64,000 nucleotides of DNA, taken from NCBI GenBank assembly GCA_949358305.1, contig OX442322.1:8494001-8558000 (forward strand), given 5' to 3'. Below the pieces are notes generated by a model. That model was not told the DNA's origin, did not search any database, and was given only the letters and a program-made list of their open reading frames with translations. Shown piece after piece: positions 15,709-52,581 of the stretch (the stretch's first letter is position 1; each line of letters starts with the position of its first letter). The position numbers were made by a program, and so were the translations under genes. The DNA is from Strigamia acuminata (taxonomy: Eukaryota > Arthropoda > Chilopoda > Geophilomorpha > Linotaeniidae).

Positions 15709-15718
15709 CACAACGCAA
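15709..15718 (+). promoter_or_regulatory. Leader motif complementary to tRNA-His anticodon arm (B)
   Basis: CACAACGCAA is the exact complement of UUGCGUUGUG. This is bases 27-36 of tRNA-His when the 5' stem strand is derived from the CGCAA seen at 13335-13339 and the loop is the invariant UU-GUG. It lies about 115 bases after the primer site. Confidence 0.65.
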
Positions 15719-15870
15719 TGTGCAAGTTGAACAGCTACAGCCTGAAAGAAGAAGAACAGTTTTAGTTTTTAAAGTGTTTTTTGGTGGGCCGTTTTTTGGG
15801 TTTTTTGGTGTGTCCCTTCTGGGGGGAGGGGAAGTGTGCATTTTCGTGTTTAAGTTAAAGTTTAAGTTTT

Positions 15871-15900
15871 TCTCCACTATAACTGCTTAGGCAGGGGAGA
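15871..15900 (+). promoter_or_regulatory. Leader RNA hairpin (B)
   Basis: TCTCC / GGAGA form an outer stem and CTGC / GCAG an inner stem with loop TTAG; ACTATAA bulges on the 5' side. D and H leaders have the same shape with compensated base pairs. CCACTATA within it can pair with UAUAGUGG of the tRNA-His D-arm. Confidence 0.65.
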
Positions 15901-16231
15901 TTTAGATAGCCTAGTAGTTAAAAGAGTCTGCTTGACAGCTTAGAGTTTTTGGGTGTTGCATCACTCAAATCCTTAGGAATTTAGAGAGTTTAGCAGTTAA
16001 CAGGAATTAGTCTACTATAGGAATTAGAGACTGGGTGTTGCGCCACTCAGATCTTTAGTAGCATAGAGTTTACAGTGAGTCTGTCTGTATATCATTCAGA
16101 TCACTAGCGGTTTAGTTGAGCAGTTAGTGTATTTGGTCATTGTTTGTCCAAATATCACCTGTGTTTAGAGTTGTGTGTCTTTGGTTTTTGACTGACTGAT
16201 TGTCTTCACTTTCTGCCATTCCAGGTTTGAC

Positions 16232-19200
16232 ATGGCTACAGGAGGTGGATCAAGGTCAGGTTCAGGGAGAACAACGCCAACAACGGTTGAGCAACAACCG
16301 CCGGAAGAAATGGACGTGTTGTCTGGGAGGTTCACGACTTTGGGGATCTCTTTGGACGCGCTTTTGAGAAGGTCCTTGACACTAAAAGATACTGGCGAGC
16401 TGGAAGCTGTAGAAATGGCTGCAGATGAACAGATGATGAGAATGATAAACGACCTGAACACGATGCAGCCCAACCTGACAAGAGATCAGTACTTGGCAAA
16501 TCTAAGGGAAATCGAAGAGTTAGATACACCGATTTCAGTTCTTAAGCACAGAACCCGAATGTCCAAGAAGTTCGTGACGCATTGGTCAGCAAATCCAGCA
16601 AATGCTTCAGCGTTGACGACCAGTACGTCTCAGAGTTCGATTTTGAACCAGACCTTGTCGCAATCGACAAGAAGGCATAATAATGCAAAGCTTCCTAAGT
16701 TGGAAATGCGGAAATTCAATGGAGATGTGACGACATTTCGTCCCTTCCTAAGCAGCTTTGATTCTGCTGTTCACAGCAACCCTGATTTATCAGAAATTGA
16801 GAAGTTGCAATACTTGCAGTCGCTGTGCACGGGAGAAGCTGCCATGCTGATCTCTGCATTTCCGTTAGTGGACGGTAATTACAATTTGGCAAGAGAAGAG
16901 TTGGAACGTTCCTACGGGGACGATGAAGCCCAGAGAGTGGCATTGGTCAAGTCCATAAGGGATATGAAACAGGTTACGGAATTGCATCCGGTCAAAGCTG
17001 TCCGTACACAGTTGACCAAGGTGTCCACTGCTATCCGCTTGCTGGAGCAGTTGAGCGTTCCAGTACAGACTGCTGGTCTGCTTCTGGCACCCGACGTGCT
17101 GAGGAAATTTCCACCTGCCATGGTGATGAGGTTTTACCAGCAGCAAGGGGCTAAGACCTCAAATTTAGTGACAATCTTGAATTTCTTTGCGGCTGAAGTT
17201 CAGCTCTTGGAGCAGATGGAAGATGTCATGGGGGCAGGAGGTCTTGCAACTAAAAAAGACAAGTCTGGAAGTTCCGACAAGGATAAGGATCAACGCAAGG
17301 GCACGATGTCCACCTGCGCTACGTCCAAAAAAGCCAAAGAGTCTTTTTGCCCAAAGCTGACCGTGGGAAGCGCAATTTGCATTTTTTGCAAAGAAGGTCA
17401 TGCTAACGCTTTCTGTAGGAAAGAAATGAGCGTGGCAGAGAAGACCACGATTATTCAACAGAACCGACTTTGCTTCAATTGCCTGCAAGAGGGACACAGG
17501 GCAATGCGGTGCCAGGTTAAAACCAGCTGCAGGACTTGCGGCGGACGACATCATTCGTCCATCTGCAGGAAATTGAACACAGGAAGTGGAGGTGGGATAG
17601 AGAAGCCCAAGGACGTGAGCGCGAACGTTTCCTTGGCGATCTCCTCAACACTTCAGTTGATGATATTCACAGCGGAGTTAAAAACAAAGTCTGGAGGTTC
17701 GCACACGATCCGTGGCATGTTAGATCCGGGCAGCCATCGGTCCTACATTTTAAAGAGTGTAGCCGACCGGATACGGTTGAAGAGTTGTGGGTCAATCGAA
17801 GCCACAGCCCAACGCCTCAATGAAGAGGATAATGCTGGATCGACGTCTTACGACGTTTACAAGCTACTCCTTCAGTCTAGGCACGGAGCCAGAGAGCTCA
17901 AGGTGACGACTTTAAGTGCAAGAAGCCTACCGCATGTGTATGGGATAGCCAGCCCTGATACCATTCAGAAAGTTAAAGATTTGGGGTTCGAATTGGCTGA
18001 AGACTTACCTTCGACTGCAGGCAATGTTGATATCTTGCTTGGAGTTGATGTTTGGTGGGAAATCTGCCTTGACGGACGGAAACGTCTTGATAACCGCTTG
18101 GGTTTGGTCAATACCATTTTTGGTTGGGTGTTGTCAGGAGCCGCTGGGTCGACAGATGTCTTCTCAGAGAGCTCGCGTGACGTGTCTTGCTGCAACACCT
18201 GTGAAATTAAGACTGGCCATGATTTGGAAAAGCTTTGGAGTTTGGAGGCTGTTGGGATTACCGCTGGCGAACGCGATTCAGATTTTGTTCGAGATCGCTT
18301 TGAGAAGTCGCACAAGCGAATGGAGGATGGTCGCTACCAAGTTTGCTTGCCCTTTAACGATAAGATCGGGGCTTTGGAATCAAACTGGGAGTTGGCTCTG
18401 AACCAACTATCACATACGCTTAGGCGAATTGATAGTAACCGCGACCACAAGGAACGTTATAACAAAGCCATGTGGGACTACGTCAAGGAAGAGCACGCGG
18501 AAGTAGTACCTCTTGCAGAGAGATACAAGAAAACTGGAGTTTATGTTATCCCGCACCATCCAGTGATCAAGGAGGACCGGGAAACAACCAAGTTCCGTGT
18601 CGTTTTCAACGCGTCGTCGGCGAGGAAGGGGCTACCTTCGCTGAACGACTGTCTGTATCCTGGCCCTTCTTTAAATCCGGATATTGTCCCAGTTATGATC
18701 CGTTTCCGCCTTTTTTGTGTAGTGGCGATAGCAGACATCAAGCAGGCTTTCCTGCAAGTGCTGATTAATCCTGACCACTGCGATTTCTTGCGGTTCCTTT
18801 GGGTCTCAGAAGAATATTTCCAAGAAGGATATTCTTGGCAGAATTTGTGGGATCACCTGGTCGTTTTAAGAATGATAGTCGTCCCTTTCGGGGTGAATTC
18901 GTCGCCATTCTTGTTGTGCGCTGTCATCCGCGCGCAAGGGCGATTGTATTTGGTGCTTTTCCCCAAAGAGGCAGACGCCCTTGATAAGGGCATCTACATG
19001 GACGATTTGACGTCCGGGGCCGATGGAACCCAAGAGACAGTTAGGCACTGTGTCAATCTACGCAGGATCCTTGACGAGGGAAAGATGCCTCTCGTCAAGT
19101 GGGCAGCATCAAAGGCAGAAGTCTTTGATGCACTCAAAGACAAGGATTTCCACATGCGTGCAGACAAGTTTGAAGATCTAGGAGTTGTCAAGATGCTGGG

Positions 19201-21508
19201 CATCCTTTGGAGCGTCCAAGATGATACGCTAATGTTCAGGATCCCGACCGGTGTTGAGATTCCCCAGTCAAGGAGGGGCATTCTGTCATTATTGGCATCA
19301 GTCTTCGACCCCTTGGGGTTGATAGCTCCAGTCATTTTGCGGATGAAGCTACTTTTACAGAGTATGTGGGGTCGCGACATCAAATGGGACGACATAATCT
19401 CCGAAGAGAACCGAGAGATAGTGACAAAATGGTACGCCGATCTTCAGCGCCTCACCGAAGCCCGGGTGAAGCGTTGGATGGGGACGTACTCGGGCCAAGA
19501 AATGGACATTGACGTCTTTTGCGACGCAAGTCCACAAGCGTACGGGTGCGCGATCTACGTTCGAGCTGCGTCAGGCGCGACCCAACTGCTCTTGAGCAAA
19601 AGCAGAATTGCCCCCACCACCAAGTTGACTTTGCCACGCCTAGAATTGACCGCAACTGTTGTTGGAGTCCGGATGGTGGAGTACATCCTAGAGGATTTCC
19701 TACCAGGTTATCCAATCGGGAAGATAAGGTATTACTCGGACTCAATGGTTGCGCTCGGGTGGTTGAAGTCTGATAAGAACAGGTGGAAGCCCTATGTCTC
19801 CAACAGAGTGGCAGAAGTTCTTGAAAAGTCAAGTCCGAGTCAGTGGGCATACGTCCCGACGGACCGGAATCCAGCGGACGTATTGACACGCCCATGCGAG
19901 GCAAAGAACCTTTTGGCCAACCGTCTCTGGTGGGACGGGCCCGGTCAGTTGGAAGACCTCGCGGACGAACCTGAGGACGTTGACCTCCCAATGGAAGAGG
20001 CAAAAAAGGAAAAGGTAGCTTTGGTTGCGTCAGATGGAGAAGCGCATATGTGCGAGGTTTTCAAGCGATTTAGTAGTTTTAATCGCCTCGTGCGAGTTTT
20101 CGCGCTCATGCGGCGCTGGCTTCCTTTTTTCGCCCGCGGGAGGGACCTCGAGGTTCTCGAGATAGAAGTTGCCGAGGAAAGAGTCATCCGCTTGGCTCAG
20201 GTCTTGAGTTTTCCAGACGAAAGACAAGCCGCAATGTTGAAAGAGAAAGTGGCAAAGGGCTCTATCCTGAAAAATTTCGACATTTTTCTGGATGAGAGAG
20301 ATTTACTAAGACTAAGGAGCCGTCTAGGGAAGTCAGCGCTTCCCTTTGACGAGGTATTTCCCATCATTTTACACCCGGATAGTTGGGTAACAAGACTAAT
20401 CATCAAGAAGGTTCACTTGCAGCTCCTGCATGGTGAGCTAAGTGAGACGTTTTACCGGTTGAGAGACAAGTATTGGATTGTAAGAGGACGCCGAACGGTC
20501 AAGGCTGTGATCCGGAGTTGCTTGGTCTGCAAACGAGAGCGGTTGGAACGAAATAACCCAGCCACTGGTGACCCTCCTATGGAGCGCGTCACGCCGGCAG
20601 CCCCGTTCCAGCATACAGGAATTGACCACCTCGGCCCTCTCACAGTCAAGCATAAGGAGAAAGGAAGAAAAGTCTATATTCTGTTGTTTACCTGCCTAGT
20701 AACACGAGCGATCCATTTGGAAGTCTCTGAGAACCTTTCGGTGGAAAAGTTCCTTCTGGCCTTCCGTCGTTTCGGCGCCAGATTTGGGTACCCGGCGAAA
20801 GTGTTCTCCGACAACTCCAAAACTTTCGAGCGAGGAAGCCAGGAGATACAGTCGTGGGGTAAATTGCTGACCAAGGATGGGATCCGGACGTTCCTTTCGG
20901 AGAAGAGAGTGGTTTGGTCGTTCATCCCACCATTGTCACCTTGGGCTGGAGGAGCCTGGGAGAGACTTGTGCGTTCGGTGAAAGATAAACTACGTAAGAT
21001 GCTGCTGCGTAGGACTGTAGACTTGGAGACGCTTCAGACGCTAGCCGTCGAGATAAGCTCCGTGCTTAACTCAAGGCCCCTGTCTTACGTACATGAGGAG
21101 GTTGACGGCGGGAGAATTCTCAGCCCTGAGAACTTTCTCACTGGAGGAATGCCCAAGTGGGTTATCAACCGTCCACTGCACGCGATAGAGAAGAAAGACC
21201 TACGGAGATTGGATAGAAAAAGACGACTTTTCGTTTGGGAGTTCTGGCGGATTTGGCGCGAGAGTTACCTGAAACAGCTAAGAAATTTTCATGAAGTCAA
21301 GGGCGACTCCCGTTTCAAGAATCCGGAAGTCGACCAGATAGTCTTGCTAGAAAAGGTCGGCTGCAATCCGTACTTCTGGCCGCTGGCACGGGTCATCGAA
21401 GTCCTACCAGGCGAAGATGGTTTTGGGCGCGTCGTGAGAGTGGTTACAGCCAATGGAAAGGAATATCGACGCTCGGTCAAACACGTAAGGGCTTTGGAGC
21501 TGGACTAG
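16232..21508 (+). CDS. gag-pol: Family B gag-pol polyprotein, apparently intact
   Basis: 1758 residues in one frame. Gag: DUF1759 from about residue 150, zinc knuckles at about 383, 414 and 433 (CIFC, CFNC, CRTC). Protease: MLDPGSHRS at about 495, DPG instead of DTG. Reverse transcriptase: IADIKQAFLQ at about 833 and YMDDL at about 922. RNase H: VFCDAS at about 1095. Integrase: zinc domain ending in SCLVCK (about 1434), then the catalytic Asp, Asp and Glu near 1463, 1525 and 1567. DUF5641 runs to the stop. Length and order are those of a complete BEL/Pao polyprotein; there is no envelope frame. The ATG is the first in frame after the leader. Cutting of the polyprotein by its own protease is family knowledge. 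The copy lacks a sense 5' LTR. Confidence 0.95.
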   Translation: MATGGGSRSGSGRTTPTTVEQQPPEEMDVLSGRFTTLGISLDALLRRSLTLKDTGELEAVEMAADEQMMRMINDLNTMQPNLTRDQYLANLREIEELDTPISVLKHRTRMSKKFVTHWSANPANASALTTSTSQSSILNQTLSQSTRRHNNAKLPKLEMRKFNGDVTTFRPFLSSFDSAVHSNPDLSEIEKLQYLQSLCTGEAAMLISAFPLVDGNYNLAREELERSYGDDEAQRVALVKSIRDMKQVTELHPVKAVRTQLTKVSTAIRLLEQLSVPVQTAGLLLAPDVLRKFPPAMVMRFYQQQGAKTSNLVTILNFFAAEVQLLEQMEDVMGAGGLATKKDKSGSSDKDKDQRKGTMSTCATSKKAKESFCPKLTVGSAICIFCKEGHANAFCRKEMSVAEKTTIIQQNRLCFNCLQEGHRAMRCQVKTSCRTCGGRHHSSICRKLNTGSGGGIEKPKDVSANVSLAISSTLQLMIFTAELKTKSGGSHTIRGMLDPGSHRSYILKSVADRIRLKSCGSIEATAQRLNEEDNAGSTSYDVYKLLLQSRHGARELKVTTLSARSLPHVYGIASPDTIQKVKDLGFELAEDLPSTAGNVDILLGVDVWWEICLDGRKRLDNRLGLVNTIFGWVLSGAAGSTDVFSESSRDVSCCNTCEIKTGHDLEKLWSLEAVGITAGERDSDFVRDRFEKSHKRMEDGRYQVCLPFNDKIGALESNWELALNQLSHTLRRIDSNRDHKERYNKAMWDYVKEEHAEVVPLAERYKKTGVYVIPHHPVIKEDRETTKFRVVFNASSARKGLPSLNDCLYPGPSLNPDIVPVMIRFRLFCVVAIADIKQAFLQVLINPDHCDFLRFLWVSEEYFQEGYSWQNLWDHLVVLRMIVVPFGVNSSPFLLCAVIRAQGRLYLVLFPKEADALDKGIYMDDLTSGADGTQETVRHCVNLRRILDEGKMPLVKWAASKAEVFDALKDKDFHMRADKFEDLGVVKMLGILWSVQDDTLMFRIPTGVEIPQSRRGILSLLASVFDPLGLIAPVILRMKLLLQSMWGRDIKWDDIISEENREIVTKWYADLQRLTEARVKRWMGTYSGQEMDIDVFCDASPQAYGCAIYVRAASGATQLLLSKSRIAPTTKLTLPRLELTATVVGVRMVEYILEDFLPGYPIGKIRYYSDSMVALGWLKSDKNRWKPYVSNRVAEVLEKSSPSQWAYVPTDRNPADVLTRPCEAKNLLANRLWWDGPGQLEDLADEPEDVDLPMEEAKKEKVALVASDGEAHMCEVFKRFSSFNRLVRVFALMRRWLPFFARGRDLEVLEIEVAEERVIRLAQVLSFPDERQAAMLKEKVAKGSILKNFDIFLDERDLLRLRSRLGKSALPFDEVFPIILHPDSWVTRLIIKKVHLQLLHGELSETFYRLRDKYWIVRGRRTVKAVIRSCLVCKRERLERNNPATGDPPMERVTPAAPFQHTGIDHLGPLTVKHKEKGRKVYILLFTCLVTRAIHLEVSENLSVEKFLLAFRRFGARFGYPAKVFSDNSKTFERGSQEIQSWGKLLTKDGIRTFLSEKRVVWSFIPPLSPWAGGAWERLVRSVKDKLRKMLLRRTVDLETLQTLAVEISSVLNSRPLSYVHEEVDGGRILSPENFLTGGMPKWVINRPLHAIEKKDLRRLDRKRRLFVWEFWRIWRESYLKQLRNFHEVKGDSRFKNPEVDQIVLLEKVGCNPYFWPLARVIEVLPGEDGFGRVVRVVTANGKEYRRSVKHVRALELD

Positions 21509-21560
21509 CGTGGTCGAGTCGCTTAGGCCGGCTGTCCGCTTCTTTTTCGGCTGGCAGCGA

Positions 21561-23132
21561 TGTTGCGAGCAAGAACGCAACAAAAAGATCTGGAGATTTC
21601 ACGTTGTTTATCTTCGGAAAGAAAGAAAAGGCTTTTTAATTTTGTTGTCAAGTTTGAATGGATTTGCAACTCTTATCTGACATGTCCAGTTGGTTTGCTG
21701 CCTTGTTGTCACGATCCTGGAAGTTCAAGGGGGTTGTCACTTCGCTTGCCACACCTGGAATGTTTGGAGGTTGTGTTTTTAGTCTTTTGGCATTGTTTTA
21801 TGTGTCTTTTTCACTTGTTTGTGTTATTTCTAGTATTTATAAGTTTTCTCCTGTTTCCAGTTCACTTGTGAGAGAGATAGGCGTGCATCGGCAAGATGGC
21901 CGCCATAGCATAAGTGAGCTGGGAAACAGGAGAACTTGAAATAAGCACAATTGCAGTTTTAGTGCTTGTTTCACTGGTAATTTAATTTATACTAACTTGT
22001 ATTGGTGTTTAAGGTAGTCCACAGGTGTCTTGGGTCGCTGGATGGACGTTGGACATCGTTTGTGAGCGTTTGCGAGCGTCGGGCGTGAGCGCACGCCTTG
22101 CGACGCCTCTCGTGGTCGTATGGGTCCTGCAAATGAGTTGAATCGGTCGGGTTTCAATGTCCAAGCACTGGGAAAGCTGTACTAACCGTTCTAGGACGCA
22201 GATCCATCGTTGAGAAGGCCTGTGAGTCGCTCGCGACCTTGTCTGGCTCCATTCACGTCATTTTGGCAGTTGCATGGTCGCCATCTTAGATTTGGTGCTG
22301 CACTGGTGCCCTGTTATTGTTTCTTTTGGGGTTTTATTGGAACCTGGACGTAGGGAATATATACTAGTTATTGTTTGTATATTTACCAATATTAGTTGTT
22401 ATTAATCTAAGCTTTTACCTTTGTTATTGCATGGTTGTTAAGGGGTTAAAACTGTGACACGTTGCGCCCTCTGTTGGTGGTGATTGGGTTTGGGCTAAGC
22501 ATTGTGTTTTGAGTGTAACTAATGTTAGTTTTAGCCTTTGAATTATCTGTTAAGTTTAAGTGAAGTGCTGTTTGCACAGGTCATAATGTTATCAAGGTGT
22601 TAGGTTAAGTTTTGCCTTTACTTATGTTAAGTTTGACATCTGTTGTAGAAATACGGAAACCTTGTTGGCACTATTGTTATTATTCAAATCTGTATTGTTT
22701 GGTCACTGACATTTATTGTAATCAGGTGACCAGTTGTTAAGAGTAGGTTGCTAAAGAAGCAACAGTTGTTATCAGTTGTTAAGTATTAAATCCAGTTGAT
22801 ATTTTTCCTCCTTCTTTGGATAATTTATTCCTGGGTTTCTTTTACTTCAATAAACATGATGGCTTGTGAGTAGAGAGCTTTGCCTGCTCTCCTCCTCCCT
22901 GGGAGCCCGGAATTTCTACCCAGCAGCTAAAGAGGTTTTGCCAATCACTTTATCTAAATGCAGTCAGGCCTAGTTTCATGCAGTCAGGCCTAACACTTCT
23001 TCAAGTTAGGCTTATGCTCAGAGAGAGGATTTCAACTTGTCTCTTCAACCACTATACAGTCTCGGGCGGTTTCCAGAGTTTGGTGACCAATTCGCCAGTT
23101 TTTTCCTGTGAGATCCAAGGTTGTTTGCTACA
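21561..23132 (+). repeat. Family B 3' LTR
   Basis: Begins TGTTGCGAGC 52 bases after the pol stop and ends TTTGCTACA. The right flank is E1 pol, beginning CTGG; no matching duplication exists on the left because that side is rearranged. A CAATAAA signal lies at about 22848. The U5 antisense site AACCACTATAC is at 23047-23057. Confidence 0.92.
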
Positions 23133-24028
23133 CTGGAATTGATCATCTTGGACCCATTTATGTTGGCAACAACAAAAAAGAACGGAAAAAGGTTTATATT
23201 CTTTTATTCACGTGTATGGTGACAAGAAGCCTACATTTAGAAGTGTCCGAAGACCTTTCTGTTCCCAAGTTTTTGTTAGCAATGCGAAGATTTGGAGCTC
23301 GCTTTGGATATCCTGCCAAAATATTCTCAGATAATAGCAAAACATTCGAACGTGGTAGTGTGGAGTTACAATCATGGGGCAAGCTCATTGGCCACAAGGA
23401 CATACAGACTTTCCTATCGGAAAAAAGAGTGTTATGGACTTTTATTCCACCACTGTCCCCCTGGATGGGAGGGGCATGGGAACGCCTTGTCCGTTCAGTT
23501 AAAGATAAACTTCGAAAAACTTTGCTTCGATATACCGTTGATTTGGAGACTCTTCAAACCTTAGCTTTGGAAATTAGTTCCGTATTAAATTCAAGACCTT
23601 TATCCTACGTTCCCGACAGTGTTGATGGAGGCAGAATTTTGGCACCTGAAAATTTTTTAACCGGTGGTTTACCAAAATACCTTATAAACAAAAAATTGAG
23701 TGCCATCAAAAAGACAGATTTAAGAAAATTAGACATTAAACGAAGACAGTTCATTTGGGAATTTTGGAGAGTGTGGAGAAAAAGTTACCTTATGCAATTG
23801 CGAAATTTTTACGAGACCAAAGGCGATAAAAATTTCAAAAACCCCAAAGTGAATCAGATCGTGTTGTTAGAAAAAATAGGAACAAATCCCTATTTTTGGC
23901 CACTTGCCCGGATAAAGGAGATTTTTCCAGGTGAGGATGGTTTTACTCGAGTCATTAAAGTAGTGCTACCAGATGGACGTGAACTGAAAAGATCAGTTAA
24001 GCATGTGAGAGCTCTTGAACTGGACTGA
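23133..24028 (+). pseudogene. Family E1 integrase and DUF5641, truncated by B
   Basis: About 298 residues from TGIDHLGPIYV (first catalytic Asp) through SDNSKTFERG and WERLVRS (second Asp and Glu) to ALELD. All upstream parts of E1 are missing because the B LTR cuts in at 23132. An ATG exists in the B LTR end in frame, but this is chance. E1 is closer to D and E2 than to B. Confidence 0.9.
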
Positions 24029-24081
24029 TTTGTTTGAGCTCGTTGTGTTTTCTCTTCTCTGTTCTCTCGCCGGCAATTCGC

Positions 24082-25982: not shown

Positions 25983-26129
25983 CAAAACTTAATTTATATC
26001 ACTTAAAATGCAATAGCAAGACTCATATCTCCCCCAAAAGGACACAAATAAAAACCCAAAGCAAAACCCATCAAAATCACAAAGAAACAACTGAATGTCA
26101 TCTTCAAAAACATGGCGAACTGCTGCACA

Positions 26130-26139
26130 TTGCGTTGTG
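26130..26139 (-). promoter_or_regulatory. Leader motif complementary to tRNA-His anticodon arm (H)
   Basis: The minus strand reads CACAACGCAA, identical to B, about 185-205 bases after the primer site. Confidence 0.65.
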
Positions 26140-26323: not shown

Positions 26324-26343
26324 AATCCGGGTCACAGGCACCA
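26324..26343 (-). promoter_or_regulatory. Primer-binding site, tRNA-His, degenerate (H)
   Basis: The minus strand TGGTGCCTGTGACCCGGAT matches the 18-base tRNA-His site with one added base and one substitution. The 16-base gap to the LTR resembles the B spacer. Confidence 0.75.
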
Positions 26344-26359
26344 AAAAACAAACTTCCCC

Positions 26360-27632
26360 TGTTGCAAACAGACATGTCGAACTCGGAAGTTGCGTGGTAC
26401 ATTCATAGGCAACTGTCCTGTTGCGCATCCATGATCGTATAGTAGAAATTCCAGCAGCAGAAAGCGTTAGGCCTAGCATTAGGCCTAGTTCTCAACCAGT
26501 AGATCAAATGGGAAAAACATCTCAGCTAATGGGCAAGCAAATGTGTCTTCAAGGAGGAGGAGAGTCAGCTTGGCTCTCTACTCACTCATTCTCTGGGAAC
26601 TCATTTCAGAAATAATCCAAAGGAAAAACATCAGAGAAAGAGAAAAGAATAACAACTTATTTATTCTAAATCAACCATAACAAGCTTCTTCTAGCAACAG
26701 CTAGTAACAACAGTAACTCACTCTTTACCTAGCAACAACAAGCGCCTAGCAACCGTGAACAATGGCGCTAAAATAGACTTATTTACAAATGACAATTACT
26801 CATTATAAGTAACTTATTGCCTCCAAAGAGGGCGCTACTTGTCTCAAACTTAACCCTTTTACATCAAAATTGATAATAAGTAATAAAAGCTTAAACTTAA
26901 CATCTATTAGAGGCATAAAATACATAAATAAACAAGTATTAACAATTCCCATTCTTAGTTCCAGAGGAAAGCCAACTTTCCTTCTCAAAGACAAAAGCCA
27001 ACCGCTCATCATGCAAGATGGCGGCACAGCAACTTGCTAACAGCTGTGCAGGCGAACAGGAGCGAGCCAGACAGACCTCCATAGCCGCCCTTGACCAGAC
27101 ATCGACGCAAGGACCTTCCAAACAGCGTGGGGACTCGAACGATTTTTCAAACCAAGGCGTATCGACGCCGCTCTAAACACACACGCGGATCTGATGCGTC
27201 CAAATGCCGTCAACTGTCACGGGAGCTTTACGCCGCTCGCCACCTGCTGCCTCACGTCTAGGAAAGTCGCTGACCCCCTAAAACATCAAGCAAAAGGTAA
27301 ACAACAATCAAATAAAATATGCCTATCTCAAAACAACTCTAATAATTCTTAAACTAATACACAGAATTACTAAACCACTAAAACGATCACATCAAAACGA
27401 CCACAAGTGACCGACAACACATCTCCCGACCAATCCAGGTGCGACTGGCAGCATGACGATCGTCAAGGACATCACCAAACAAGACCGCTGGTCAGCCAAA
27501 CAACCGGACATCTCAGATATGTCTCCAACTTGTGTCAAAAACTAAAAAGCAAATTAAAAAGTCAAATCTTCTTTTCAGAAGCCAAAACGTGGAAAACTTC
27601 TAAATCTTTTTGTTGCGTTCCTGCTCGCAACA
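26360..27632 (-). repeat. Family H 5' LTR
   Basis: 1273 bases; on the minus strand it begins TGTTGCGAGCAGGAACGCAACAA, very like B, and ends GTTTGCAACA. Its outer edge joins the 140-bp satellite. It contains CAAGATGGCGGC (YY1-like) at about 27014. TGATCGTATAGTAG at 26432-26445 is the sense of tRNA-His bases about 5-18, so the element RNA carries the complement. Confidence 0.85.
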
Positions 27633-28176
27633 AGACTTTTGATCTCATCACAGTTGACTTAGCACAAACACCACAAGACCAATGTCTCTGAATGTTCAGA
27701 AATAGTGTTTAAACCTTAGTAGAAGGCTCCAATGTAAGTTTTAGCAACATCCAAGCAATGATTTGGGAGAATAGACTTTTGATCTCATCACAGTTGACTT
27801 AGCACAAACACCACAAGACCAATGTCTCTGAATGTTCAGAAATAGTGTTTAAACCTTAGTAGAAGGCTCCAATGTAAGTTTTAGCAACATCCAAGCAATG
27901 ATTTGGGAGAATAGACTTTTGATCTCATCACAGTTGACTTAGCACAAACACCACAAGTCCAATGTCTCTGAATGTTCAGAAATAGTGTTTAAACCTTAGT
28001 AGAAGCCTTCAATGTAAGTTTTAGCAACATCCAAGCAATGATTTGCGAGAATAGACTTTTGATCTCATCACAGTTGACTTAGCACAAACACCACAAGACC
28101 AATGTCTCTGAATGTTCAGAAATAGTGTTTAAACCTTAGTAGAAGGCTCCAATGTAAGTTTTAGCAACATCCAAGC
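27633..28176. repeat. 140-bp satellite array, left part
   Basis: Unit starts (GACTTTTGATCTC) recur at 27634, 27774, 27914 and 28054, exactly 140 apart. Units differ at few sites (GGCTCC or CCTTC; GGGAG or GCGAG; AGACC or AGTCC). The array is cut by D1 within CCAAGC and continues at 60228. Confidence 0.95.
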
Positions 28177-29687
28177 TGTTGCAAACAACGTGGAAGTATT
28201 TTAGAAATTGCATTTATTACTGTGTTTTATGTCATAATAAATATTCATAGTGTAGTGGAATTTTTGCCTAATATTTTCATTTATTGCATTTCAGGTTTTA
28301 TCTTATTAAAACATTTTCTAGTGTTTTCAGTATTTTTAGTGTCTTTTGTGTTGATATTACATTTTAATTTACTGTTATTTCAAGTGTTTTTGAAGCTTTG
28401 TGTCATTTCTCATTGTTTTCTTATGCATTTTCATGATTTTCGGCAATTTTAGGTACATTCGTCGAAGTGCAGTTCAGTTACGCTACACGCGTGACGTCAT
28501 TTTTCCATTACTAGTCTCGTTTCGTTAGAACTTCTAACGTTTCGTTCTATACTTTCCGAGTTGTTAAGAATTCTATTCACAATTGCTTTCTACTAATTAT
28601 TGTCTGCTCTTTCGACTGGTGTGCTTTATTATTGCCCAAGTGTTTTCGTTTCGTCAGTGCGAACGTTCGTTGTCGGCCACCGCATGGGCGCGGCCGATAA
28701 TGTTCGGTTCGTGCGGCTTACGATCTATTTCTAAGTGTTGTGTTGAATAAATAGTGTGATTTTGTGCAGGAAATAACATTTCCTAACTTTATTTAACATT
28801 CCTATGTGGTTTTTATAAACATTCTGTGTATCTAATTTCAAATGTACTGGTTTTACCGCCAATATGACGTTCGAGGCCGCCATGTTGGAATTTATCGGTA
28901 ATTCGTTTTTATTTCAATTTGTTTACGATGTATATTGATTGAATTGATTTTACTATTTGTTTACGATGTTTTTTAACCTGAATTCTTATGTTATTTTGTG
29001 TTTTAAAGCCATTTTAAATTCAAATCTTACGGTTACGTCATCATACTTGCCTGTGATTGGCTATTGCGATCGTCTGCTACACGATCATTGTTTTGTGCTT
29101 CGTTTTCATTGTTTTACTTATTGAATCGAATTGTTATGATTAGCTTTTTTATTCACTGCATTCTTGCGGTCATTTTGATATATTACAAACTGTAATCCGT
29201 GCTAATTTCACAATTTGTCAACTTTGCCTGTATTTCGTTTTCCTCCGTTGCCATGACAACGGAGAATTTTGTGTCTGTATTTCGCCGCTAATCGGCTTGG
29301 CGCGTGCCATTTTCGGTATTGCGCATGTGCGGCTCCCTTGAGGGCCAATTACATTCGTGTATTTTATTCAGTTTTCATCTAACCGTTCATTAAAGAAGTT
29401 GTTGAATTTTAGCTCGTGTTTAACTTTATTTCCGCCATCTTTTCCAATGTGTCGGGAGTAGTTAATCTCTTTTCCCCGCTGGCTTATGGATAAACAAGCA
29501 CTCGGATACCTTTCAACAGTGCTCTCGTTTGCTTTCTCCTCATGCAACAATGGATTCGGGAGTGATTATTGTGGTTTCCAGCACGGTTTATGTACGTACT
29601 TTGCTATACGATCATCTAATCTTAGTGGCGGGAATTTCAAACCGCAAATGCCCATTTCTTCTATATTCGTGTTGACCGACCGCAACA
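28177..29687 (+). repeat. D1 5' LTR
   Basis: 1511 bases, TGTTGCAAACAACG to GACCGCAACA, flanked on the left by target duplication CAAGC (28172-28176; partner 60228-60232). It contains CRE TGACGTCA at 28492-28499, an X-box palindrome within 29243-29264, GCGCATGTGCGG, and an ATTAAA signal near 29388. CTATACGATCA at 29604-29614 is the U5 tRNA-His antisense site. Confidence 0.95.
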
Positions 29688-30493
29688 TCGAATATCTAGT
29701 TTTGGTAGCCGTGACCAGGATAGCCGTTGCATTCTTTCTGTGTTTTTGTCGTGACGTCAGTGCAACGTCCGATCGTGCGTTTGGTGCGATCAACGGAATA
29801 ATTTACGTTCGCGATTCGTCGTCTGCTACAAGTAGTGTCAACGTTCAACGTGACTTCAGCCACAACGAGGACAGGTACGGCGTCGAATTTGAACAATCGT
29901 GTGCAAGCAACGGGATCTTCCGGTCGCCATATTTGGATACACAACGCGCTGCGCTGGGAAGACGATTTGCTCCTGGATTATTTGCATTTTCTTGTTTTTG
30001 GAGTTCTGTGTTTTCATTTTGGGGATTTTTATTGCATGAGGGTATTGTTTTGGGTATTCCATTGGTGTTTTTGTTGTTTCATTTGCTAGTTTTGGGGAAA
30101 ATTTTAGTAAAAGTGTTTTCATACCAAATTTTGAAGTGTTTTTTCATTGCATGTTTAGTTCTCCATTATAACCGCCATAAGCGGGGGAGATTAGATTTAT
30201 TTCGAGTAGAACTGACTAGTTTCAAGTTGAATGAGCTGTCAGTAGAGTCAAAATTTAATGTTAGGAGATATTGGCGTGTTTTGTTGCAAAACGAACCGTC
30301 AATTGTTTTCAAAAGAGTTTATTGGCGTGCTTTGTTGCAAAACAAACCGTCAATTATTTTCAAACTGTGCAGGGTAATTGTGTCACGTTTTATTTACGTA
30401 CACAAAAACCGCTCAAATTTTTGGTCATCCTCGATTGGCCAAACATTTGATATTCTAAAATTCTCACGTGTCACCAAGGACCGTGAAAATTGA
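29486..30493 (+). CDS. Possible leader frame upstream of gag (D1)
   Basis: 335 codons beginning in the LTR and ending 200 bases before the gag ATG; D2 keeps the same length (43486-44493). The middle (about residues 158-215) is strongly hydrophobic and could span a membrane one or more times; the end is basic. No known domain is recognised. The T-rich sequence makes hydrophobic residues likely in any frame, and D1 and D2 are too alike to show selection, so I regard it as unproven. Confidence 0.25.
   Translation: MDKQALGYLSTVLSFAFSSCNNGFGSDYCGFQHGLCTYFAIRSSNLSGGNFKPQMPISSIFVLTDRNIEYLVLVAVTRIAVAFFLCFCRDVSATSDRAFGAINGIIYVRDSSSATSSVNVQRDFSHNEDRYGVEFEQSCASNGIFRSPYLDTQRAALGRRFAPGLFAFSCFWSSVFSFWGFLLHEGIVLGIPLVFLLFHLLVLGKILVKVFSYQILKCFFIACLVLHYNRHKRGRLDLFRVELTSFKLNELSVESKFNVRRYWRVLLQNEPSIVFKRVYWRALLQNKPSIIFKLCRVIVSRFIYVHKNRSNFWSSSIGQTFDILKFSRVTKDREN
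29703..29721 (+). promoter_or_regulatory. Primer-binding site, tRNA-His (D1)
   Basis: TGGTAGCCGTGACCAGGAT is the tRNA-His site with one extra A, 15 bases after the LTR. D2 has the identical form (43703-43721), so it is a family trait and not damage. Confidence 0.8.
29940..29947 (+). promoter_or_regulatory. Leader motif complementary to tRNA-His anticodon arm (D1)
   Basis: CACAACGC pairs with GCGUUGUG, tRNA-His bases 29-36, including the anticodon. It lies about 220 bases after the primer site. The D family lacks the final AA of the ten-base form. D2 copy at 43940-43947. Confidence 0.55.
30160..30190 (+). promoter_or_regulatory. Leader RNA hairpin (D1)
   Basis: TCTCC / GGAGA outer stem, CCGC / GCGG inner stem, loop CATAA and bulge ATTATAA. 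The inner stem differs from B and H (CTGC / GCAG) by a compensated pair. D2 copy at 44160-44190. Confidence 0.65.
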
Positions 30494-34008: not shown

Positions 34009-34026
34009 TGGTGCCGTGACCAGGAT
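34009..34026 (+). promoter_or_regulatory. Primer-binding site, tRNA-His (C)
   Basis: TGGTGCCGTGACCAGGAT, an exact 18-base match, three bases after the LTR. Confidence 0.92.
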
Positions 34027-34294: not shown

Positions 34295-34417
34295 ATGTCC
34301 GCCAGGGGTCGTCTGCGCGTACCCGAAGATATCCGTAGTACACAACGCAATAGACTCTCATCTGAACTTTTCGTGTTTTTTATTTTGATTAAGTTATTTG
34401 TTTTTTGTCGTATTTAA
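34295..34417 (+). CDS. Tiny leader frame (C), doubtful
   Basis: 40 codons. They contain STQRN, encoded by the anticodon motif, followed by a hydrophobic stretch (LFVFFILIKLFVF). G, H and B leaders also read TQRN in one frame, followed by hydrophobic residues. The shared peptide may simply follow from the RNA motif and T-rich sequence. Confidence 0.15.
   Translation: MSARGRLRVPEDIRSTQRNRLSSELFVFFILIKLFVFCRI
34341..34350 (+). promoter_or_regulatory. Leader motif complementary to tRNA-His anticodon arm (C)
   Basis: CACAACGCAA, identical to B, G and H, about 315 bases after the primer site, in an element that codes for nothing. That argues for a role in the RNA. Confidence 0.68.
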
Positions 34418-42176: not shown

Positions 42177-43687
42177 TGTTGCAAACAACGTGGAAATATT
42201 TTAGAAATTGCATTTATTACTGTGTTTTATGTCATAATAAATATTCATAGTGTAATTGAGTTTTTGCCTAATATTTTCATCTATTGCTTTTCAGGTTTTT
42301 TCTTATTAAAACATTTTCTAGTGTTTTCAGTATTTTTAGTGTCTTTTGTGTTGATATTACATTTTAATTTACTGTTATTTCAAGTGTTTTCAAAGCTTTG
42401 TGTCATTTCTCATTGTTTTCTTATGCATTTTCATGATTTTCGGCAATTTTAGGTACATTTGTCGAAGTGCAGTTCAGTTACGCTACACGCGTGACGTCAT
42501 TTTTCCATTACTAGTCTCGTTTCGTTAGAACTTCTAACGTTTCGTTCTATACTTTCCGAGTTGTTAAGAATTCTATTCACAATTGCTTTCTACTAATTAT
42601 TGTCTGCTCTTTCGACTGGTGTGCTTTATTATTGCCCAAGTGTTTTTGTTTCGTCAGTGCGAACGTTCGTTGTCGGCCACCGCATGGGCGCGGCCGATAA
42701 TGTTCGGTTCGTGCGGCTTACGATCTATTTCAAAGTGTTGTGTTGAATAAATAGTGTGATTTTGTGCAGGAAATAACATTTCCTAATTTTATTTAACATT
42801 CCTTTGTGGTTTTTATAAACATTCTGTGTATCTAATTTCAAATGTACTGGTTTTACCGCCAATATGACGTTCGAGGCCGCCATGTTGGAATTTATCGGTA
42901 ATTCGTTTTTATTTCAATTTGTTTACGATGTATATTGATTGAATTGATTTTACTATTTGTTTACAATGTTTTTTAACCTGAATTCTTATGTTATTTTGTG
43001 TTTTAAAGCCATTTTAAATTCAAATCTTACGGTTTCGTCATCATACTTGTTTGTGATTGGCTATCGCGATCGTCTGCTACACGATCATTGTTTTGTGCTT
43101 CGTTTTCATTGTTTTACTTATTGAATCGAATTGTTATGATTAGCTTTTTTATTCACTGCATTCTTGCGGTCATTTTGATATATTACAAACTGTAATCCGT
43201 GCTAATTTCACAATTTGTCAACTTTGCCTGTATTTCGTTTTCCTCCGTTGCCATGACAACGGAGAATTTTGTGTCTGTATTTCACCGCTAATCGGCTTGG
43301 CGCGTGCCATTTTCGGTATTGCGCATGTGCGGCTCCCTTGAGGGCCAATTACATTCGTGTATTTTATTCAGTTTTCATCTAACCGTTCATTAAAGAAGTT
43401 GTTGAATTTTAGCTCGTGTTTAACTTTATTTCCGCCATCTTTTCCAATGTGTCGGGAGTAGTTAATCTCTTTTCCCCGCTGGCTTATGGATAAACAAGCA
43501 CTCGGATACCTTTCAACAGTGCTCTCGATTGCTTTCTCCTCATGCAACAATGGATTCGGGAGTGATTATTGTGGTTTCCAGCACGGTTTATGTACGTACT
43601 TTGCTATACGATCATCAAATCTTAGTGGCGGGAATTTCAAACCGCAAATGCCCATTTCTTCTATATTCGTGTTGACCGACCGCAACA
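42177..43687 (+). repeat. D2 5' LTR
   Basis: 1511 bases, same ends as D1. Target duplication CAAT at 42173-42176 and 57308-57311. X-box palindrome within 43243-43264; U5 tRNA-His antisense site CTATACGATCA at 43604-43614. Confidence 0.95.
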
Positions 43688-44624
43688 TCGAATATCTAGT
43701 TTTGGTAGCCGTGACCAGGATAGCCGTTGCATTCTTTCTGTGTTTTCGTCGTGACGTCAGTGCAACGTCCGATCGTGCGTTTGGTGCGATCAACGGAATA
43801 ATTTACGTTCGCGATTCGTCGTCTGCTACAAGTAGTGTCAACGTTCAACGTGACTTCAGCCACAACGAGGACAGGTACGGCGTCGAATTTGAACAATCGT
43901 GTGCAAGCAACGGGATCTTCCGGTCGCCATATTTGGATACACAACGCGCTGCGCTGGGAAGACGATTTGCCCCTGGATTATTTGCATTTTCTTGTTTTTG
44001 GAGTTCTGTGTTTTCATTTTGGGGATTTTTATTGCATGAGGGTATTGTTTTGGGTATTCCATTGGTGTTTTTGTTGTTTCATTTGCTAGTTTTGGGGAAA
44101 ATTTTAGTAAAAGTGTTTTCATACCAAATTTTGAAGTGTTTTTTCATTGCATGTTTAGTTCTCCATTATAACCGCCATAAGCGGGGGAGATTAGATTTAT
44201 TTCGAGCAGAACTGACTAGTTTCAAGTTGAATGAGCTGTCAGTAGAGTCAAAATTTAATGTTAAGAGTTATTGGCGTGTTTTGTTGCAAAACGAACCGTC
44301 AATTGTTTTCAAAAGAGTTTATTGGCGTGCTTTGTTGCAAAACAAACCGTCAATTATTTTCAAACTGTGCAGGGTAATTGTGTCACGTTTTATTTACGTA
44401 CACAAAAACCGCTCAAATTTTTGGTCATCCTCGATTGGCCAAACATTTGATATTCTAAAATTCTCACGTGTCACCAAGGACCGTGAAAATTGAGAAATTT
44501 TTGGGGGATAAAATTACAAGGTTTATTCTCTTAAAAATTAAAACAAAGTTGAATTGTCATGCCCGTTTTTATCTGTTCTTTCCAAATTTCACAGCCGAAT
44601 TTTTTGTGAGAGAGGACAGAGAGA
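43688..44624 (+). other. D2 leader
   Basis: Holds the primer site TGGTAGCCGTGACCAGGAT (43703-43721), the anticodon motif (43940-43947), the hairpin (44160-44190) and a 335-codon frame (43486-44493) as in D1, but only one copy of the 69-base unit near its end. Confidence 0.85.
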
Positions 44625-47600: not shown

Positions 47601-48042
47601 ATTCCGACCATTGAAAAAATTCCGAATACAAAGCGAGAAGTTGTTTCATTAATGGCTTCCATATTCGATCCAATGGGACTCATTGCTCCTGTTGTGCTTC
47701 AAATGAAACTGCTAGTTCAAGCAATCTGGATTAGGACAAAAAACTGGGATGAAAAGATTCTTGACTCAGAGAAAAAAGAAGTCGAAGAGTGGAGTCAAGA
47801 CATACAAAAATTAAAAGAATTGAAAGTACAACGTTGGCTGCAGACTTATTCCGGTCAAGACATCACTTTAGAAGTTTTCTGTGACGCAAGCACAAAGGCA
47901 TTTGGCTGTTCAATTTTTGTCGTCAATCTAGAGGGCAAAAGAACTTTATTGTTGAGTAAATGTCGTATTGCGCCGACGAAAAAAGTGACTCTTCCTCGAC
48001 TTGAATTAACTGCAGCAGTGGTTGGAGTGCGAATGACCAAGT
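44625..48042 (+). CDS. gag-pol: D2 gag-pol, first part (gag to RNase H)
   Basis: Close to D1 throughout, with scattered substitutions. One alters the third zinc knuckle region (CKHCGGQHH for CKHCGGRHH). The protease has MIDPGSHRS; reverse transcriptase has IADIKQAFLQ (about 47092) and FMDDL (about 47357); RNase H starts with VFCDAS (about 47878). Element G breaks it after VGVRMTK with duplication AAGT. The two D2 parts together have 5241 coding bases, as in D1. The dozen residues after the break are G LTR sequence. Confidence 0.95.
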
Positions 48043-48815
48043 TGTTTCTAGCAGTGCTTGAAGACCGTGTTGCACTCTAGAAGACATTTGAAAATGGTTA
48101 AAATAAATAACCCTATTTACCAGAACTTGTGAAGAATCCCAAAGAAGAAAGTCCATTACAGGAAAAAACCTTGATGTGAAACCTGTAAAGTGAGCTGTGA
48201 ACATGTTGGGACAATTCAATACTATTGTGCTCAAGTTAGCACACAAAAACGAATTTATTGTAAGGTTAAAATCTATCAAAACATTACACATAAGAGAGGA
48301 GAAAATCAACGTTACTTAGGACTAGAAAAAACATATATCAAGTCAGAGTAGTTGCTGCGCAACCTACAACAATTAGAGCAGCGGCTCTTAGCAACGAGTG
48401 GCAACAATCACTCGCAAGAGGCGAATTGTCCCTCTAGTGACAAAATGATAAAGCGTATACAAGAAAATACACAGTTTCGAGTATAAAATCATTACAAAAG
48501 GCACAAAAACGTAATAAATTAAGACAAAGTGTTTCAAATAAACGAACTAACTTAGGAACTAACAGCAGCAACTCTTTGGACGAATCCAAGCAGTAAAACT
48601 CCAAAGAATCAAAGAAAAGATACAAGATTACCTTAAAAAAGACAGCTTAAATCAGGTAAAACATAACTCCCACGTCACAAACTACACGAAATTCATTTAA
48701 CCTTTAGCCAAAACTTAAGCTGCACTATTAACTAAACACAAACTTAAATTAATGATTAATCAAAGCAAATCCGCTATTGCGATAGCAAAAATCCATGTTG
48801 CGCGTGCTCGCAACA
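48043..48815 (-). repeat. Element G 3' LTR (minus strand)
   Basis: 773 bases, on the minus strand TGTTGCGAGCACGCGCAACA to GCTAGAAACA. Target duplication AAGT at 48039-48042 and 53910-53913. Confidence 0.95.
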
Positions 48816-51800
48816 GCGTTGCCGGCCAAAGAAGAAGGAAAGGCAAGGTAGAAAACCGTTGAAGGAATTCCCCATCAAAACCAAGAGAACGGGAAGAAAA
48901 AGTATCGAAGCCAAGCTCGACCTTGTAAAAGTCGCGAAGGCAAAACCATAGACACGAAGGCAAAAAGCTGTAACCTAAACATCCGAGACCTCTAGGAGCG
49001 TCCCAGGGTCAAGGGCATCGAAGTCGGATCGCGGCCCAAAAACACCGGAGAGACGAAAGAAAAGAGAAGGGCCGTGCCACGATGACCTAGTCCAGACACC
49101 GAGGGGCTACGACGTCGCCAATAGACACGTGGCACACACACAAAATACTTTTAGAAAATCTGACTGAACGGGTTTTCTAACCGGAACAACGTGAGAACAT
49201 TGCGGGAGCTTCTCAGAAAGCTCAGTCTGTCAACCCGTAGACAGACGATTAAACTAATGAAAGCTAAAAACAGGAAAACGAGAATCCTCGTCAAAGAGGA
49301 AGGAAAACTGTCACAAAAGCTCTTGAACGAGCATGGTCTCGCAAAGAACAAGACATGCATGAAGACTAGAAAGAAAACTTGGAACGCAAAAAGAGAACGG
49401 ACTTGAGACACGGCAGGCTTCACCGCCTCGTTGTCCTCGAGCCAGCGCTCAAGTGACAGCGTACCACGGAAACCTGCATCCGCACTAAAACACGAGCTGC
49501 GAACTTAAACTTATTAAACTATTAAAGACGACCCTTTTCTAGAAAACAAGAAAAATGCAAACTAAGGGAATGAATGCGTTGACCCAGACCTATCGTCTGA
49601 CCAACCACCCAGCATTCGTACGAAGAACTAGAAAATGCCGTCAAGACCTAGGCACCACTCTTTCGCAAAGAGTGACTAACTAACCACTTACCCAAAGCCA
49701 TGACCACCTAGCTAACATGATCACGCCAGAAGAAGGAAAAAGAGAACGAGAAAGCATGAAGCTCAGGCAATGCGAACCATTCACCGCAACTGCCACGCAA
49801 AGGCGTTGACCGCACCCTGACTTGACATGAACCCACGAAACCGCTAAGAGCGAAGAATAACGAAAAAAGGAAAAGACTTAGTCAGATGACTGTGCAAGCC
49901 AACTGCGACCTCTTGTCCACAGCGACAAGGAAACACGCGCACGCTGACCCATCGACCAAAACTTTAACTAACTAATAAAAGAAAAACGGTTCAATTATCT
50001 AAAAAAAAACGAACACGTTCCGTGCAAATAAATACCGGCAAAAACGTCAATATTATCACTAAAGCTATTGGCCAAGTATGGCCTCACAAGGGAAACTAAA
50101 AAACTGGAACTGTGAAAACCAGCAAGAATTCCAAAACACTAAACTTTCTGCTTTTTTTTCGAAGAGAGAATAAGTCCGTACCCAAATAATCAATCCATTT
50201 CCTCCCCACAAGAAAAGAAAGGAAAGGGACCTGCTTCTTTTTGAAGATCAACAGGTGTCAAACGATACTGAAAAACGTTGGAAGCAGTGCAACTGCAACC
50301 AAATGAAGCGAAGCTACACTTCCTGCACGAAAACTAATCACGTCGTTGAAAAGAAATTAAAACCGGTGGCTTTCTTTCAACCGAGCTGCGCTTTACGAAT
50401 GCGCCTTGAACAAGGAGGTACCCGATGGACTGCACGTCCGCACTCGGGCCACCGTGTAGCCTGTTGTGAGCAGACTACCACGAAGACTGAAACTTCTTTA
50501 ACCGAGAGGGAAATAGAAACTAGATCTAGTTAAAACCCCATGCTCCAATAAGGAGGCTACTGTATGAACGCTTGGCCCACCCCGAGTCGGAACCAATATG
50601 ATTGAACCGAGAAACGAGAGAAGAGGGGGGGTTGCTTGACGTCCCTGATTGCGAGGGGCGTCACACATAGACATGAGCAGAAGGACTTGCCAGTTGCCAA
50701 CCGCATTACTGGAACCGGTAAGCAACTGCAAGTCGACAATTGACTCGCTCACATACCCATTGACCACATCGTCGATCAGCAAGCCGACTTCCGGAAATCG
50801 CCACTCTACTGAAAGCACGTGTTGTCCAATGACTAAAACGTGTTGCCGAGTGCCGGCGCCAAGAAGGCCGCACACACACGTCCTTCGACCCATCCTAGAG
50901 TGGGCTCCCTGCCTAGTGCATGTCTGCCTCACTGCAGAGCTAGGGATGAAAGACTAACAACAACTACTCAGTCGCGGGAAGCAAACGTAGAAATAGGGGC
51001 CGCCAAAAGGCGCAGGGACTTTGTCTCGGACACGACATCTAACAGAGTATGGCAGTGCAAACCTGCCCTCTGTAACACATCGAATGGCAGTCCTTGCTGT
51101 GCACAGCAAAAACGACCATCCAAAACAAGTACCTATACCCTAACGCCACGCTAGCTAGCCGCAACCCAAAAATAGCAAGCAAGCTATTTCCTAAACGAAT
51201 AAGCTAAAATGTCCAAATTCTAAGGTTGCCCCAAAGAACTAGAATAACTAAACTCCCTTTTTTAAACGATAAAAGGCGAGACTAATCACTAATGAAGACT
51301 CATGAAACGCTACGGACGTTTCCACGAAGAGAAAGCGAAAATGCAGAACGTACATCACCAGCGGTAGACACTGGGTGCAGCGGACAACAACAGAAACTGG
51401 ACTTGCCCAGTGGGCGGTGCGGATCGGCTGCTCTAAACTTCCAGCACCGACAGAAGTCACACGCCTATCTAAATCCAAACCCACTTGCAAACAAGTCGTA
51501 TAACAATCTAACCGAACAGAAATTGACGGACAGATAAGAACCGACTGACCTCACGGGCCAGCGCTCGCTCAGCTAGACATGAGCAGCAAAAGAACGAATC
51601 TCGTTCTAAAAACAAGAAACGTTCTACAAACACTCGAATACAAACGGGTGTGCCCTCTCCCAAAGCGGAGAGATGATCGACACCAGAGCTCACGAGGAAA
51701 CTCGTGCGGCACACGAAAAACATTGGACACAAAACGTAAAGACTAGAGGTCGTCCACATTCCAAACACAAGAGCAGGCTCACATGACGAGAAGAAGCCAG

Positions 51801-52564
51801 ATCACTCAAGGACCCCCCTGACCGCCGCTCTGATAGGCGGGAAGGACGAGGAGAAGGAACTGGTTGGCTCACAATAGCTAGTAATTTAACTTTAGCGTAG
51901 GGCAGAAAGCTAAAAGCGGGAGTTAATCGACCCCGAGCTGACGACTAACTGGCCAACACCACTAAAAATTTGCAAATGTGACGACGCTCCTGTCATTAAG
52001 CCTAAAAATTTCTTAAAAAGACTACACGAAAAAGGGAAAAACCCCGGGAGATCAAAGAACTCAAGTCCAAAGAGCTAATAACGTGGTAAATTGGCAAACT
52101 CGATTAAAAAGGGAAACTTGGAAACAAGTAGCTTTGCTTCTCACATATTAAACCAAAAATTCTTACCAAAAACGTGAGTGAACAAAGAATAAAGCTATTA
52201 ACCAGCACAGGCATAAATGCGATCAGAAAATTGGACTCCCTTATTAAATCCAGACACAGAAAGCCAATAAATACGTACAAATCATTCTTTGGCACTTAAA
52301 CAATGAACTGAGGACAATAGCAACCTAACCGTAAGCGAGGAGGGCAAAAACAGAAGTTTAGGGTTTAAGGGGACTCCAAACAAGGCGCAAATAGGCGTGG
52401 AAACTAGCTACACTTGCACAACGACGTATGCAGAAGCATGAAACAGAACTAACGCCCCAAAACTCCCAAAACAACCACAATTTCCCCCAAAAACCTTAAA
52501 ATTAACATTTGATGAAAACGAGAAAATATAATCGACAAAAAAACGAAATCTTCATTGCCGACTC

Positions 52565-52581
52565 TAGTACATTGCGTTGTG
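52565..52581 (-). promoter_or_regulatory. Leader motif complementary to tRNA-His anticodon and D-arm (G)
   Basis: The plus strand here reads TAGTACATTGCGTTGTG. This equals tRNA-His bases 20-36 of the human sequence (from memory) except at 26 and 27, and base 27 is T as required by the tRNA copy at 13335. The element RNA therefore carries a 17-base complement, the longest in the window, about 530-550 bases after the primer site. Confidence 0.72.

What the first reader, a model, noticed from the sequence alone, without database searches (positions are those of the whole stretch)
15709..52581. Leader motif CACAACGC(AA) complementary to the tRNA-His anticodon arm in five families
B (15709), C (34341), G (52572-52581, minus) and H (26130, minus) share CACAACGCAA exactly; D1 and D2 share CACAACGC. 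Distances from the primer site vary from about 115 to 550 bases, so it is not just shared neighbouring sequence, and it persists in C and G, which encode no proteins. It complements anticodon bases 34-36 and the 5' stem. The stem sequence UUGCG was derived independently from the tRNA copy at 13335, and in G the match extends to 17 bases. Together with the primer site the order is antiparallel and colinear with tRNA-His (76-59, then 36-27), like the box elements of Ty1.
Basis: partly seen in the sequence, partly recalled or inferred. Interest (0 to 1): 0.9.

Follow-up and report, generated by a model that had tools for sequence, protein, structure and literature searches.

The report
Retrotransposon leaders matching primer tRNA's anticodon
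Many otherwise dissimilar leaders of one kind of jumping gene in this animal genome share a short sequence that can pair with the anticodon arm of the same histidine tRNA they use to start copying themselves, which suggests a second grip on the primer beyond the usual one.

Summary
Host tRNA-His genes show that the motif is the complement of tRNA bases 36 back to 22-20. Of 50 exact His primer sites read, 37 have CACAACGC downstream (one through). All 17 of 30 longer loci with a BEL/Pao gag behind the site have it. It lies 176-551 bases from the site in 17 leader clusters that blastn does not link. Behind the core, the commonest tail AATGTAC is the tRNA complement, best of 16,384 heptamers. None of 38 BEL loci with another primer site has it in the stretch read. 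Corrections: window element B has lost its own primer site; window element A has lost its leader. New: prevailing primer sites of several His families are imperfect, with family-specific insertions. Best reading: a second contact that helps choose, hold or place the primer tRNA, as Ty1 boxes and the HIV A-loop do, but on the anticodon arm and far downstream. Function is inferred, not shown; no primer-switch family was found, so the decisive comparison is open.

The parts
15709..15721 (+). Motif of B, CACAACGCAATGT, complement of tRNA-His 36-24
   Evidence: B copy is 5'-truncated
15592..15604 (+). Supposed primer site of B: internal leader, not a primer site
   Evidence: aligned with L023 leader
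13385..15589 (-). Inverted copy of B's own 3' end (96.9% to 20927-23132), in place of the 5' LTR and primer site
13334..13371 (+). Copy of mature tRNA-His from base 38 to the CCA end; begins just after G37
34009..34026 (+). Primer site of C, exact 18 bases
34341..34351 (+). Motif of C, complement of tRNA-His 36-26
29703..29721 (+). Primer site of D1 with one inserted A
29940..29947 (+). Motif of D1, core only
43703..43721 (+). Primer site of D2 with one inserted A
43940..43947 (+). Motif of D2, core only
53108..53132 (-). Primer site of G with a seven-base insertion
52565..52581 (-). Motif of G, 17 bases complementary to tRNA-His 36-20
26325..26343 (-). Primer site of H with one inserted T and one mismatch
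26127..26139 (-). Motif of H, complement of tRNA-His 36-24
771..788 (+). Primer site of A, exact; leader and motif missing in this copy
   Evidence: family copy L024

Best explanation
In the long-leader, His-primed BEL/Pao families of this genome the genomic RNA holds its primer tRNA at two places. The primer site after the LTR pairs with the 3' end of tRNA-His. A second site 176-551 bases further on, usually ACACAACGC followed by all or part of AATGTAC, pairs with anticodon bases 36-34, loop bases 33-32, the 5' anticodon stem 31-27 and, in the best families, on to 22 or 20. The anticodon stem and part of the D arm would have to open, and pairing stops at G37. The second contact would help the RNA select or package tRNA-His and anneal it, or steady the initiation complex, and may let the primer site itself be imperfect. 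Shown: sequences, complementarity, conservation, position, primer-site variants. Inferred: that the pairing forms, that it acts in priming or packaging, and that it relaxes the primer site.
For: Complement of the host tRNA-His genes. 37 of 50 exact primer sites read have the core downstream (L220 through); 17 of 17 loci with gag, plus 5 without gag. 17 of 30 leader clusters, 176-551 bases away. Commonest 8-mer of the leaders in a search that did not use the tRNA, 14 of 28 clusters against at most 9 for any 8-mer in 200 shuffles. Tail agrees with the tRNA in 79 of 119 cells, top of 16,384 heptamers. Sharp edge at G37: the pairing C in 0 of 17, and a tRNA copy in the window that begins at base 38. 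Non-coding C and G keep it. Reading frame around it differs between families. Precedents: Ty1 boxes, HIV A-loop.
Against: No primer switch seen, so compensatory change is untested. The base opposite G37 is A in 16 of 17 clusters, which pairing does not explain. Clusters led by L016, L020, L025 and L037 keep the core but little of the tail. L021 groups with a motif family but lacks the core. Thirteen of 50 primer sites lack it. Predicted accessibility is mixed, mean percentile 0.78, range 0.23-0.97, 15 leaders. The other-primer families do without it. The anticodon and D stems must open.
Confidence: 0.72

Rival explanations
1. The motif is a binding site for Gag, a host protein or a partner RNA (packaging, dimerisation, insulator), and its match to tRNA-His is a coincidence.
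For: It is kept in non-coding elements, lies where packaging signals lie, and its conserved A opposite G37 does not pair.
Against: A free 8-base site would match this one tRNA by chance in about 1 case in 1,000 (my estimate, 65 of 65,536), and the tail, not used to find the sites, again gives the tRNA complement as best of 16,384. Enrichment falls off stepwise along tRNA 36 to 20.
Confidence: 0.14
2. The motif is aimed at 5' halves of tRNA-His, as an alternative primer site (copia uses a tRNA half, recalled) or as a sponge or regulator.
For: The complement ends at base 36, near where 5' halves end (recalled); the 5' half alone carries the bases matched.
Against: The LTR ends at the ordinary primer site, 176-551 bases upstream, so priming at the motif is not the standard start.
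Confidence: 0.07
3. The motif is a relic of antisense tRNA copied during reverse transcription.
For: tRNA copies beyond the usual 18 bases exist: 38 bases at 13334-13371, and longer primer-site copies in L206 and L207.
Against: Leaders around it no longer align between clusters while the 8-base core is what all 17 share; relics would lie beside the primer site, and the window's copy stops short of the part the motif matches.
Confidence: 0.03

Closest known systems
Ty1 primer site with Box 0, Box 1, Box 2.1 (passages of PMC5454406 and PMC4974528)
   Same: Short leader segments downstream of the primer site complementary to other parts of the primer tRNA, in antiparallel order.
   Different: Ty1 boxes pair with T and D arms of initiator tRNA-Met, are 6-7 bases and lie within some 70 bases; here the anticodon arm of tRNA-His, 8-17 bases, 176-551 bases away.
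HIV-1 A-loop and tRNA anticodon (abstract of PMC1785369; passages of PMC7793103)
   Same: Pairing of leader RNA with the primer's anticodon; complementarity to the tRNA-His anticodon mattered for stable use of that primer in engineered HIV.
   Different: The A-loop lies upstream of the primer site and natural HIV uses tRNA-Lys3; here it is natural, downstream, longer, and in BEL/Pao elements.
Ty3 bipartite primer site (passages of PMC4974528)
   Same: Primer tRNA contacts separate segments of the RNA.
   Different: Ty3 segments lie at opposite ends of the RNA and match initiator tRNA-Met.
Mouse ERVs with imperfect common primer sites (passages of PMC7472051)
   Same: Commonest primer sites of a family mismatch the tRNA while some copies are perfect; tRNA-fragment silencing was proposed as the reason.
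   Different: The passages describe mismatches in families where no anticodon contact is mentioned (0 occurrences of 'anticodon'); here many variants are insertions of 1-7 bases, in families with the second site.

Membership tests
BEL/Pao LTR retrotransposons (carriers) | Pao peptidase A17, DUF1759, RT and integrase zinc domains, LTRs | tested here: met
   A and B: A17, DUF1759, RVT_1, H2C2; D: A17, DUF1759, H2C2 in pieces. C and G have LTRs but no such ORF; they belong by primer site and leader only.
Extended primer-tRNA contact (Ty1-box-like, HIV-A-loop-like) | Leader segment complementary to the element's own primer tRNA outside its 3' end | tested here: met
   host tRNA genes and leaders
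Extended primer-tRNA contact (Ty1-box-like, HIV-A-loop-like) | Segment changes with the primer when related families switch tRNA | tested here: inconclusive
   0 of 38 loci with another primer site keep it, but they have short leaders and other lineages; no switch inside the long-leader families was found
Extended primer-tRNA contact (Ty1-box-like, HIV-A-loop-like) | Mutation of the segment harms tRNA annealing, packaging or priming | not testable with these tools
   needs a bench assay
Ty1 boxes proper | Complementarity to T and D arms, close behind the primer site | tested here: not met
   Matches lie at tRNA 36-20, the T arm shows no more than 2 of 28 clusters for any 8-mer; distance 176-551

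The most novel reading that the evidence does not exclude
A group of BEL/Pao families recognises its primer mainly by the anticodon arm: the anticodon contact gives tRNA-His identity, while the primer site is kept imperfect by family-specific bulges, perhaps to escape silencing by 3' tRNA fragments. That would be a split way of choosing a primer, with a methylated G37 as its natural boundary.
Probability: 0.3. Interest if true: 0.87.

Novelty: new variant of a known kind. Interest (0 to 1): 0.74.

Why it matters
How retroelements pick one tRNA out of the cell is an old question, known in detail for few systems. Here one genome offers 17 leader clusters that keep the same anticodon-arm complement while the sequence around it changed, beside other BEL loci with a different primer and mostly perfect primer sites (36 of 38). 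This makes the role of a second contact, and a possible trade-off with primer-site perfection, testable by comparison and by cell-free annealing. Ten paper searches listed no paper whose title or shown abstract start reports such a motif in BEL/Pao; most hits were seen only as listings, and the library lacks most subscription papers.

Tried and rejected
Protein-coding explanation: in 21 leaders the longest open frame around the motif falls in all three phases. Splice donor or start codon: the letters behind the core differ. Neighbouring homology: leaders were grouped by blastn (E 1e-3, 40 bases) and one representative per cluster counted; for two clusters I took as representative a member other than the first, wG because L220 was cut short and L031 because L021 lacks the motif. 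Relatives elsewhere: viral contigs gave no encoded relative of the pol piece, no His primer site, and 120 or more stretches with the 15-mer that I did not analyse. Long-leader families with another primer: none recognised among eight gag-chosen loci; L230/L234 stays open. Anticodon complement in the other-primer loci: none of eight or more bases in 30 loci with a recalled animal tRNA-Phe; the intact host gene was not found, only a degenerate copy. A match to tRNA-Phe T-arm bases (GAACCAG, about 33 bases after the site) recurs in close kin among them; I give it no weight. L019 and L041 look like inverted repeats around an 18-base copy of the primer site (by eye). The eight three-kilobase loci without motif were compared with other upstream regions and matched only short shared repeats; they are unresolved.

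Full report
Setting. The window is part of a 237.5 Mb genome in 157 contigs. It holds nested LTR retrotransposons; A, B and D are BEL/Pao by Pfam. C and G have LTRs; of ORFs of 200 codons or more none lies in C's interior, and G has one, which spans its LTR end and leader.

The observation. All stated matches are there. The host tRNA-His gene was found at seven places, six identical over the stretch compared and one (L009) with C instead of A at base 26. Its complement read from base 36 is CACAACGCAATGTACTAACC. G matches 17 bases of it, B and H 13 (15 with a G-U pair), C 11, D 8.

Is it general? The 18-base primer site, up to one mismatch, occurs 157 times; 100 exact places were listed. I read the first 30 in contig order and 20 more picked for spread over contigs, before seeing their sequence. 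CACAACGC follows within the stretch read in 22 of 30 and 14 of 20. L220, cut short by my fetch, has it too: the 15-mer at C11:20981-20995 lies 544 bases behind its primer site. That makes 37 of 50; 13 lack it. Among the 30 longer loci each of the 17 with a match to BEL gag pieces has the motif; 5 have motif and no gag match, like C; the 8 without motif have no gag match. One of these eight, L021, groups with a motif family by leader similarity.

The other direction is weaker. CACAACGCAA occurs 1,152 times against 461 for its reversed control, so many copies are chance. Of the first eight places on contig C1, none has a His primer site within two edits in the 700 bases before it; a looser search shows one in L004. 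The longer CACAACGCAATGTAC is far from chance: 240 against 0.

Is it more than kinship? Over 63 leaders (50 sites, 6 from the window, 7 found through gag) blastn linkage gave 30 clusters; 17 carry the motif, 176 to 551 bases from the primer site. In a count that did not use the tRNA, over one leader for each of 28 clusters, the core was the commonest 8-mer, in 14 (15 after L031 replaced L021 as representative); over 200 shuffles the commonest 8-mer of any kind reached at most 9, and the core at most 2. Tiling the tRNA complement, the 8-mers from 36-29 down to 27-20 are in 15, 12, 11, 10, 9, 6, 4, 4, 2 and 2 of 28; no other 8-mer of the tRNA exceeds 2. Given the core, the seven letters behind it agree with the tRNA complement in 79 of 119 cells, the top score of all 16,384 heptamers. 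In each of 15 leaders the motif ranks within the best ten windows for pairing with the tRNA 5' half; predicted accessibility is mixed.

The edge at G37. No cluster has the pairing C opposite G37; 16 of 17 have A, one G. In the window a copy of the mature tRNA, CCA included, begins at base 38 beside an inverted B LTR (13334-13371). Copying of the primer thus ended at 37 in that event, as a methylated G37 would cause. That eukaryotes make m1G37 is in passages of PMC4033218; that tRNA-His carries it is recalled. It is one event, and the conserved A is not explained by pairing.

Other primers. The 30 loci cut out for the best gag-domain (DUF1759) hits, several of them near-identical copies, all have the site TGGTGCCGAAACCCGGGA; of 10 further hits 8 have it or a near form and 2 showed neither site. 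By recall it is that of tRNA-Phe. None of the 38 has CACAACGC in the stretch read, which for the last 8 ends some 100-250 bases behind the site. In six printed leaders the gag start codon lies some 50-100 bases behind the site (by eye). So the motif goes with His-primed, long-leader families; a switch of primer among these was not found. L230/L234, 77% like B in the gag domain, showed no primer site in the 3.4 kb fetched upstream; a CACAACGC about 2.9 kb from the domain may be chance.

Corrections in the window. B's supposed primer site is internal leader and its left end is an inverted copy of its 3' end, 96.9% identical over 2.2 kb. A has its primer site at 771 and its gag domain at 975, so no long leader; its family copy L024 has the motif at +287.

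Imperfect primer sites. Copies reached through gag or the long motif, in part chosen because no exact site was listed there, show family-specific forms: A 5 of 5, B 5 of 6 (the sixth gave no site), D 4 of 4, H 3 of 3, a family I call E 2 of 2, all 19 with the motif; further L226-L229 and L231-L233. Most carry insertions of one to seven bases between pairing halves; predicted pairing falls from -37.0 to between -33.8 and -20.3 kcal/mol. On contigs for which, by its order, the list of exact sites is complete, an exact site stands at the expected place in 2 of 28 A and 3 of 40 B copies; copies with a lost leader count as without (coordinates typed). Of the 38 other-primer loci 36 are exact. G and E share the same seven-base insertion though their leaders did not cluster. 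In mouse ERVs, too, the commonest primer sites are imperfect, read there as escape from tRNA-fragment silencing (passages). My inference: a second contact lowers the demand on the primer site. The comparison is between lineages and does not prove it.

Mechanism and standing. Closest in function are Ty1 boxes and the HIV A-loop. This would work like them but with the anticodon arm, far downstream, in BEL/Pao elements and across many families. Pairing in the particle, the step served, and any link to silencing are not shown.

Noticed in passing
window 669-3311, residues 738-874 of the frame: The gag-domain frame of element A also carries a thymidine kinase domain (PF00265, E 4.8e-42), an unexpected cargo for a BEL element.
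   Followed up: no
window 53108-53132; L232, L233, L254, L255: Two families whose leaders do not cluster share the same or nearly the same seven-base insertion in the primer site.
   Followed up: partly
window 11371-15589 and 20927-23132: B is flanked on the left by a direct and an inverted copy of its LTR region, with a 38-base tRNA-His copy between them: it looks like an aberrant reverse-transcription product.
   Followed up: partly
L206, L207: Primer-site copies that run on into tRNA-His well past the usual 18 bases, with no such leader behind.
   Followed up: partly
L040, L217: Two primer-site-like sequences in tandem behind an LTR-like end.
   Followed up: no
L230, L234 (C5:15614466-15617867): A family 77% like B in the gag domain, open frame 1,787 aa, with no recognised primer site in the 3.4 kb fetched upstream; it may use another primer.
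   Followed up: partly
window 27493-28212 and 60108-61247: Tandem arrays of a 140-base unit at two places.
   Followed up: no
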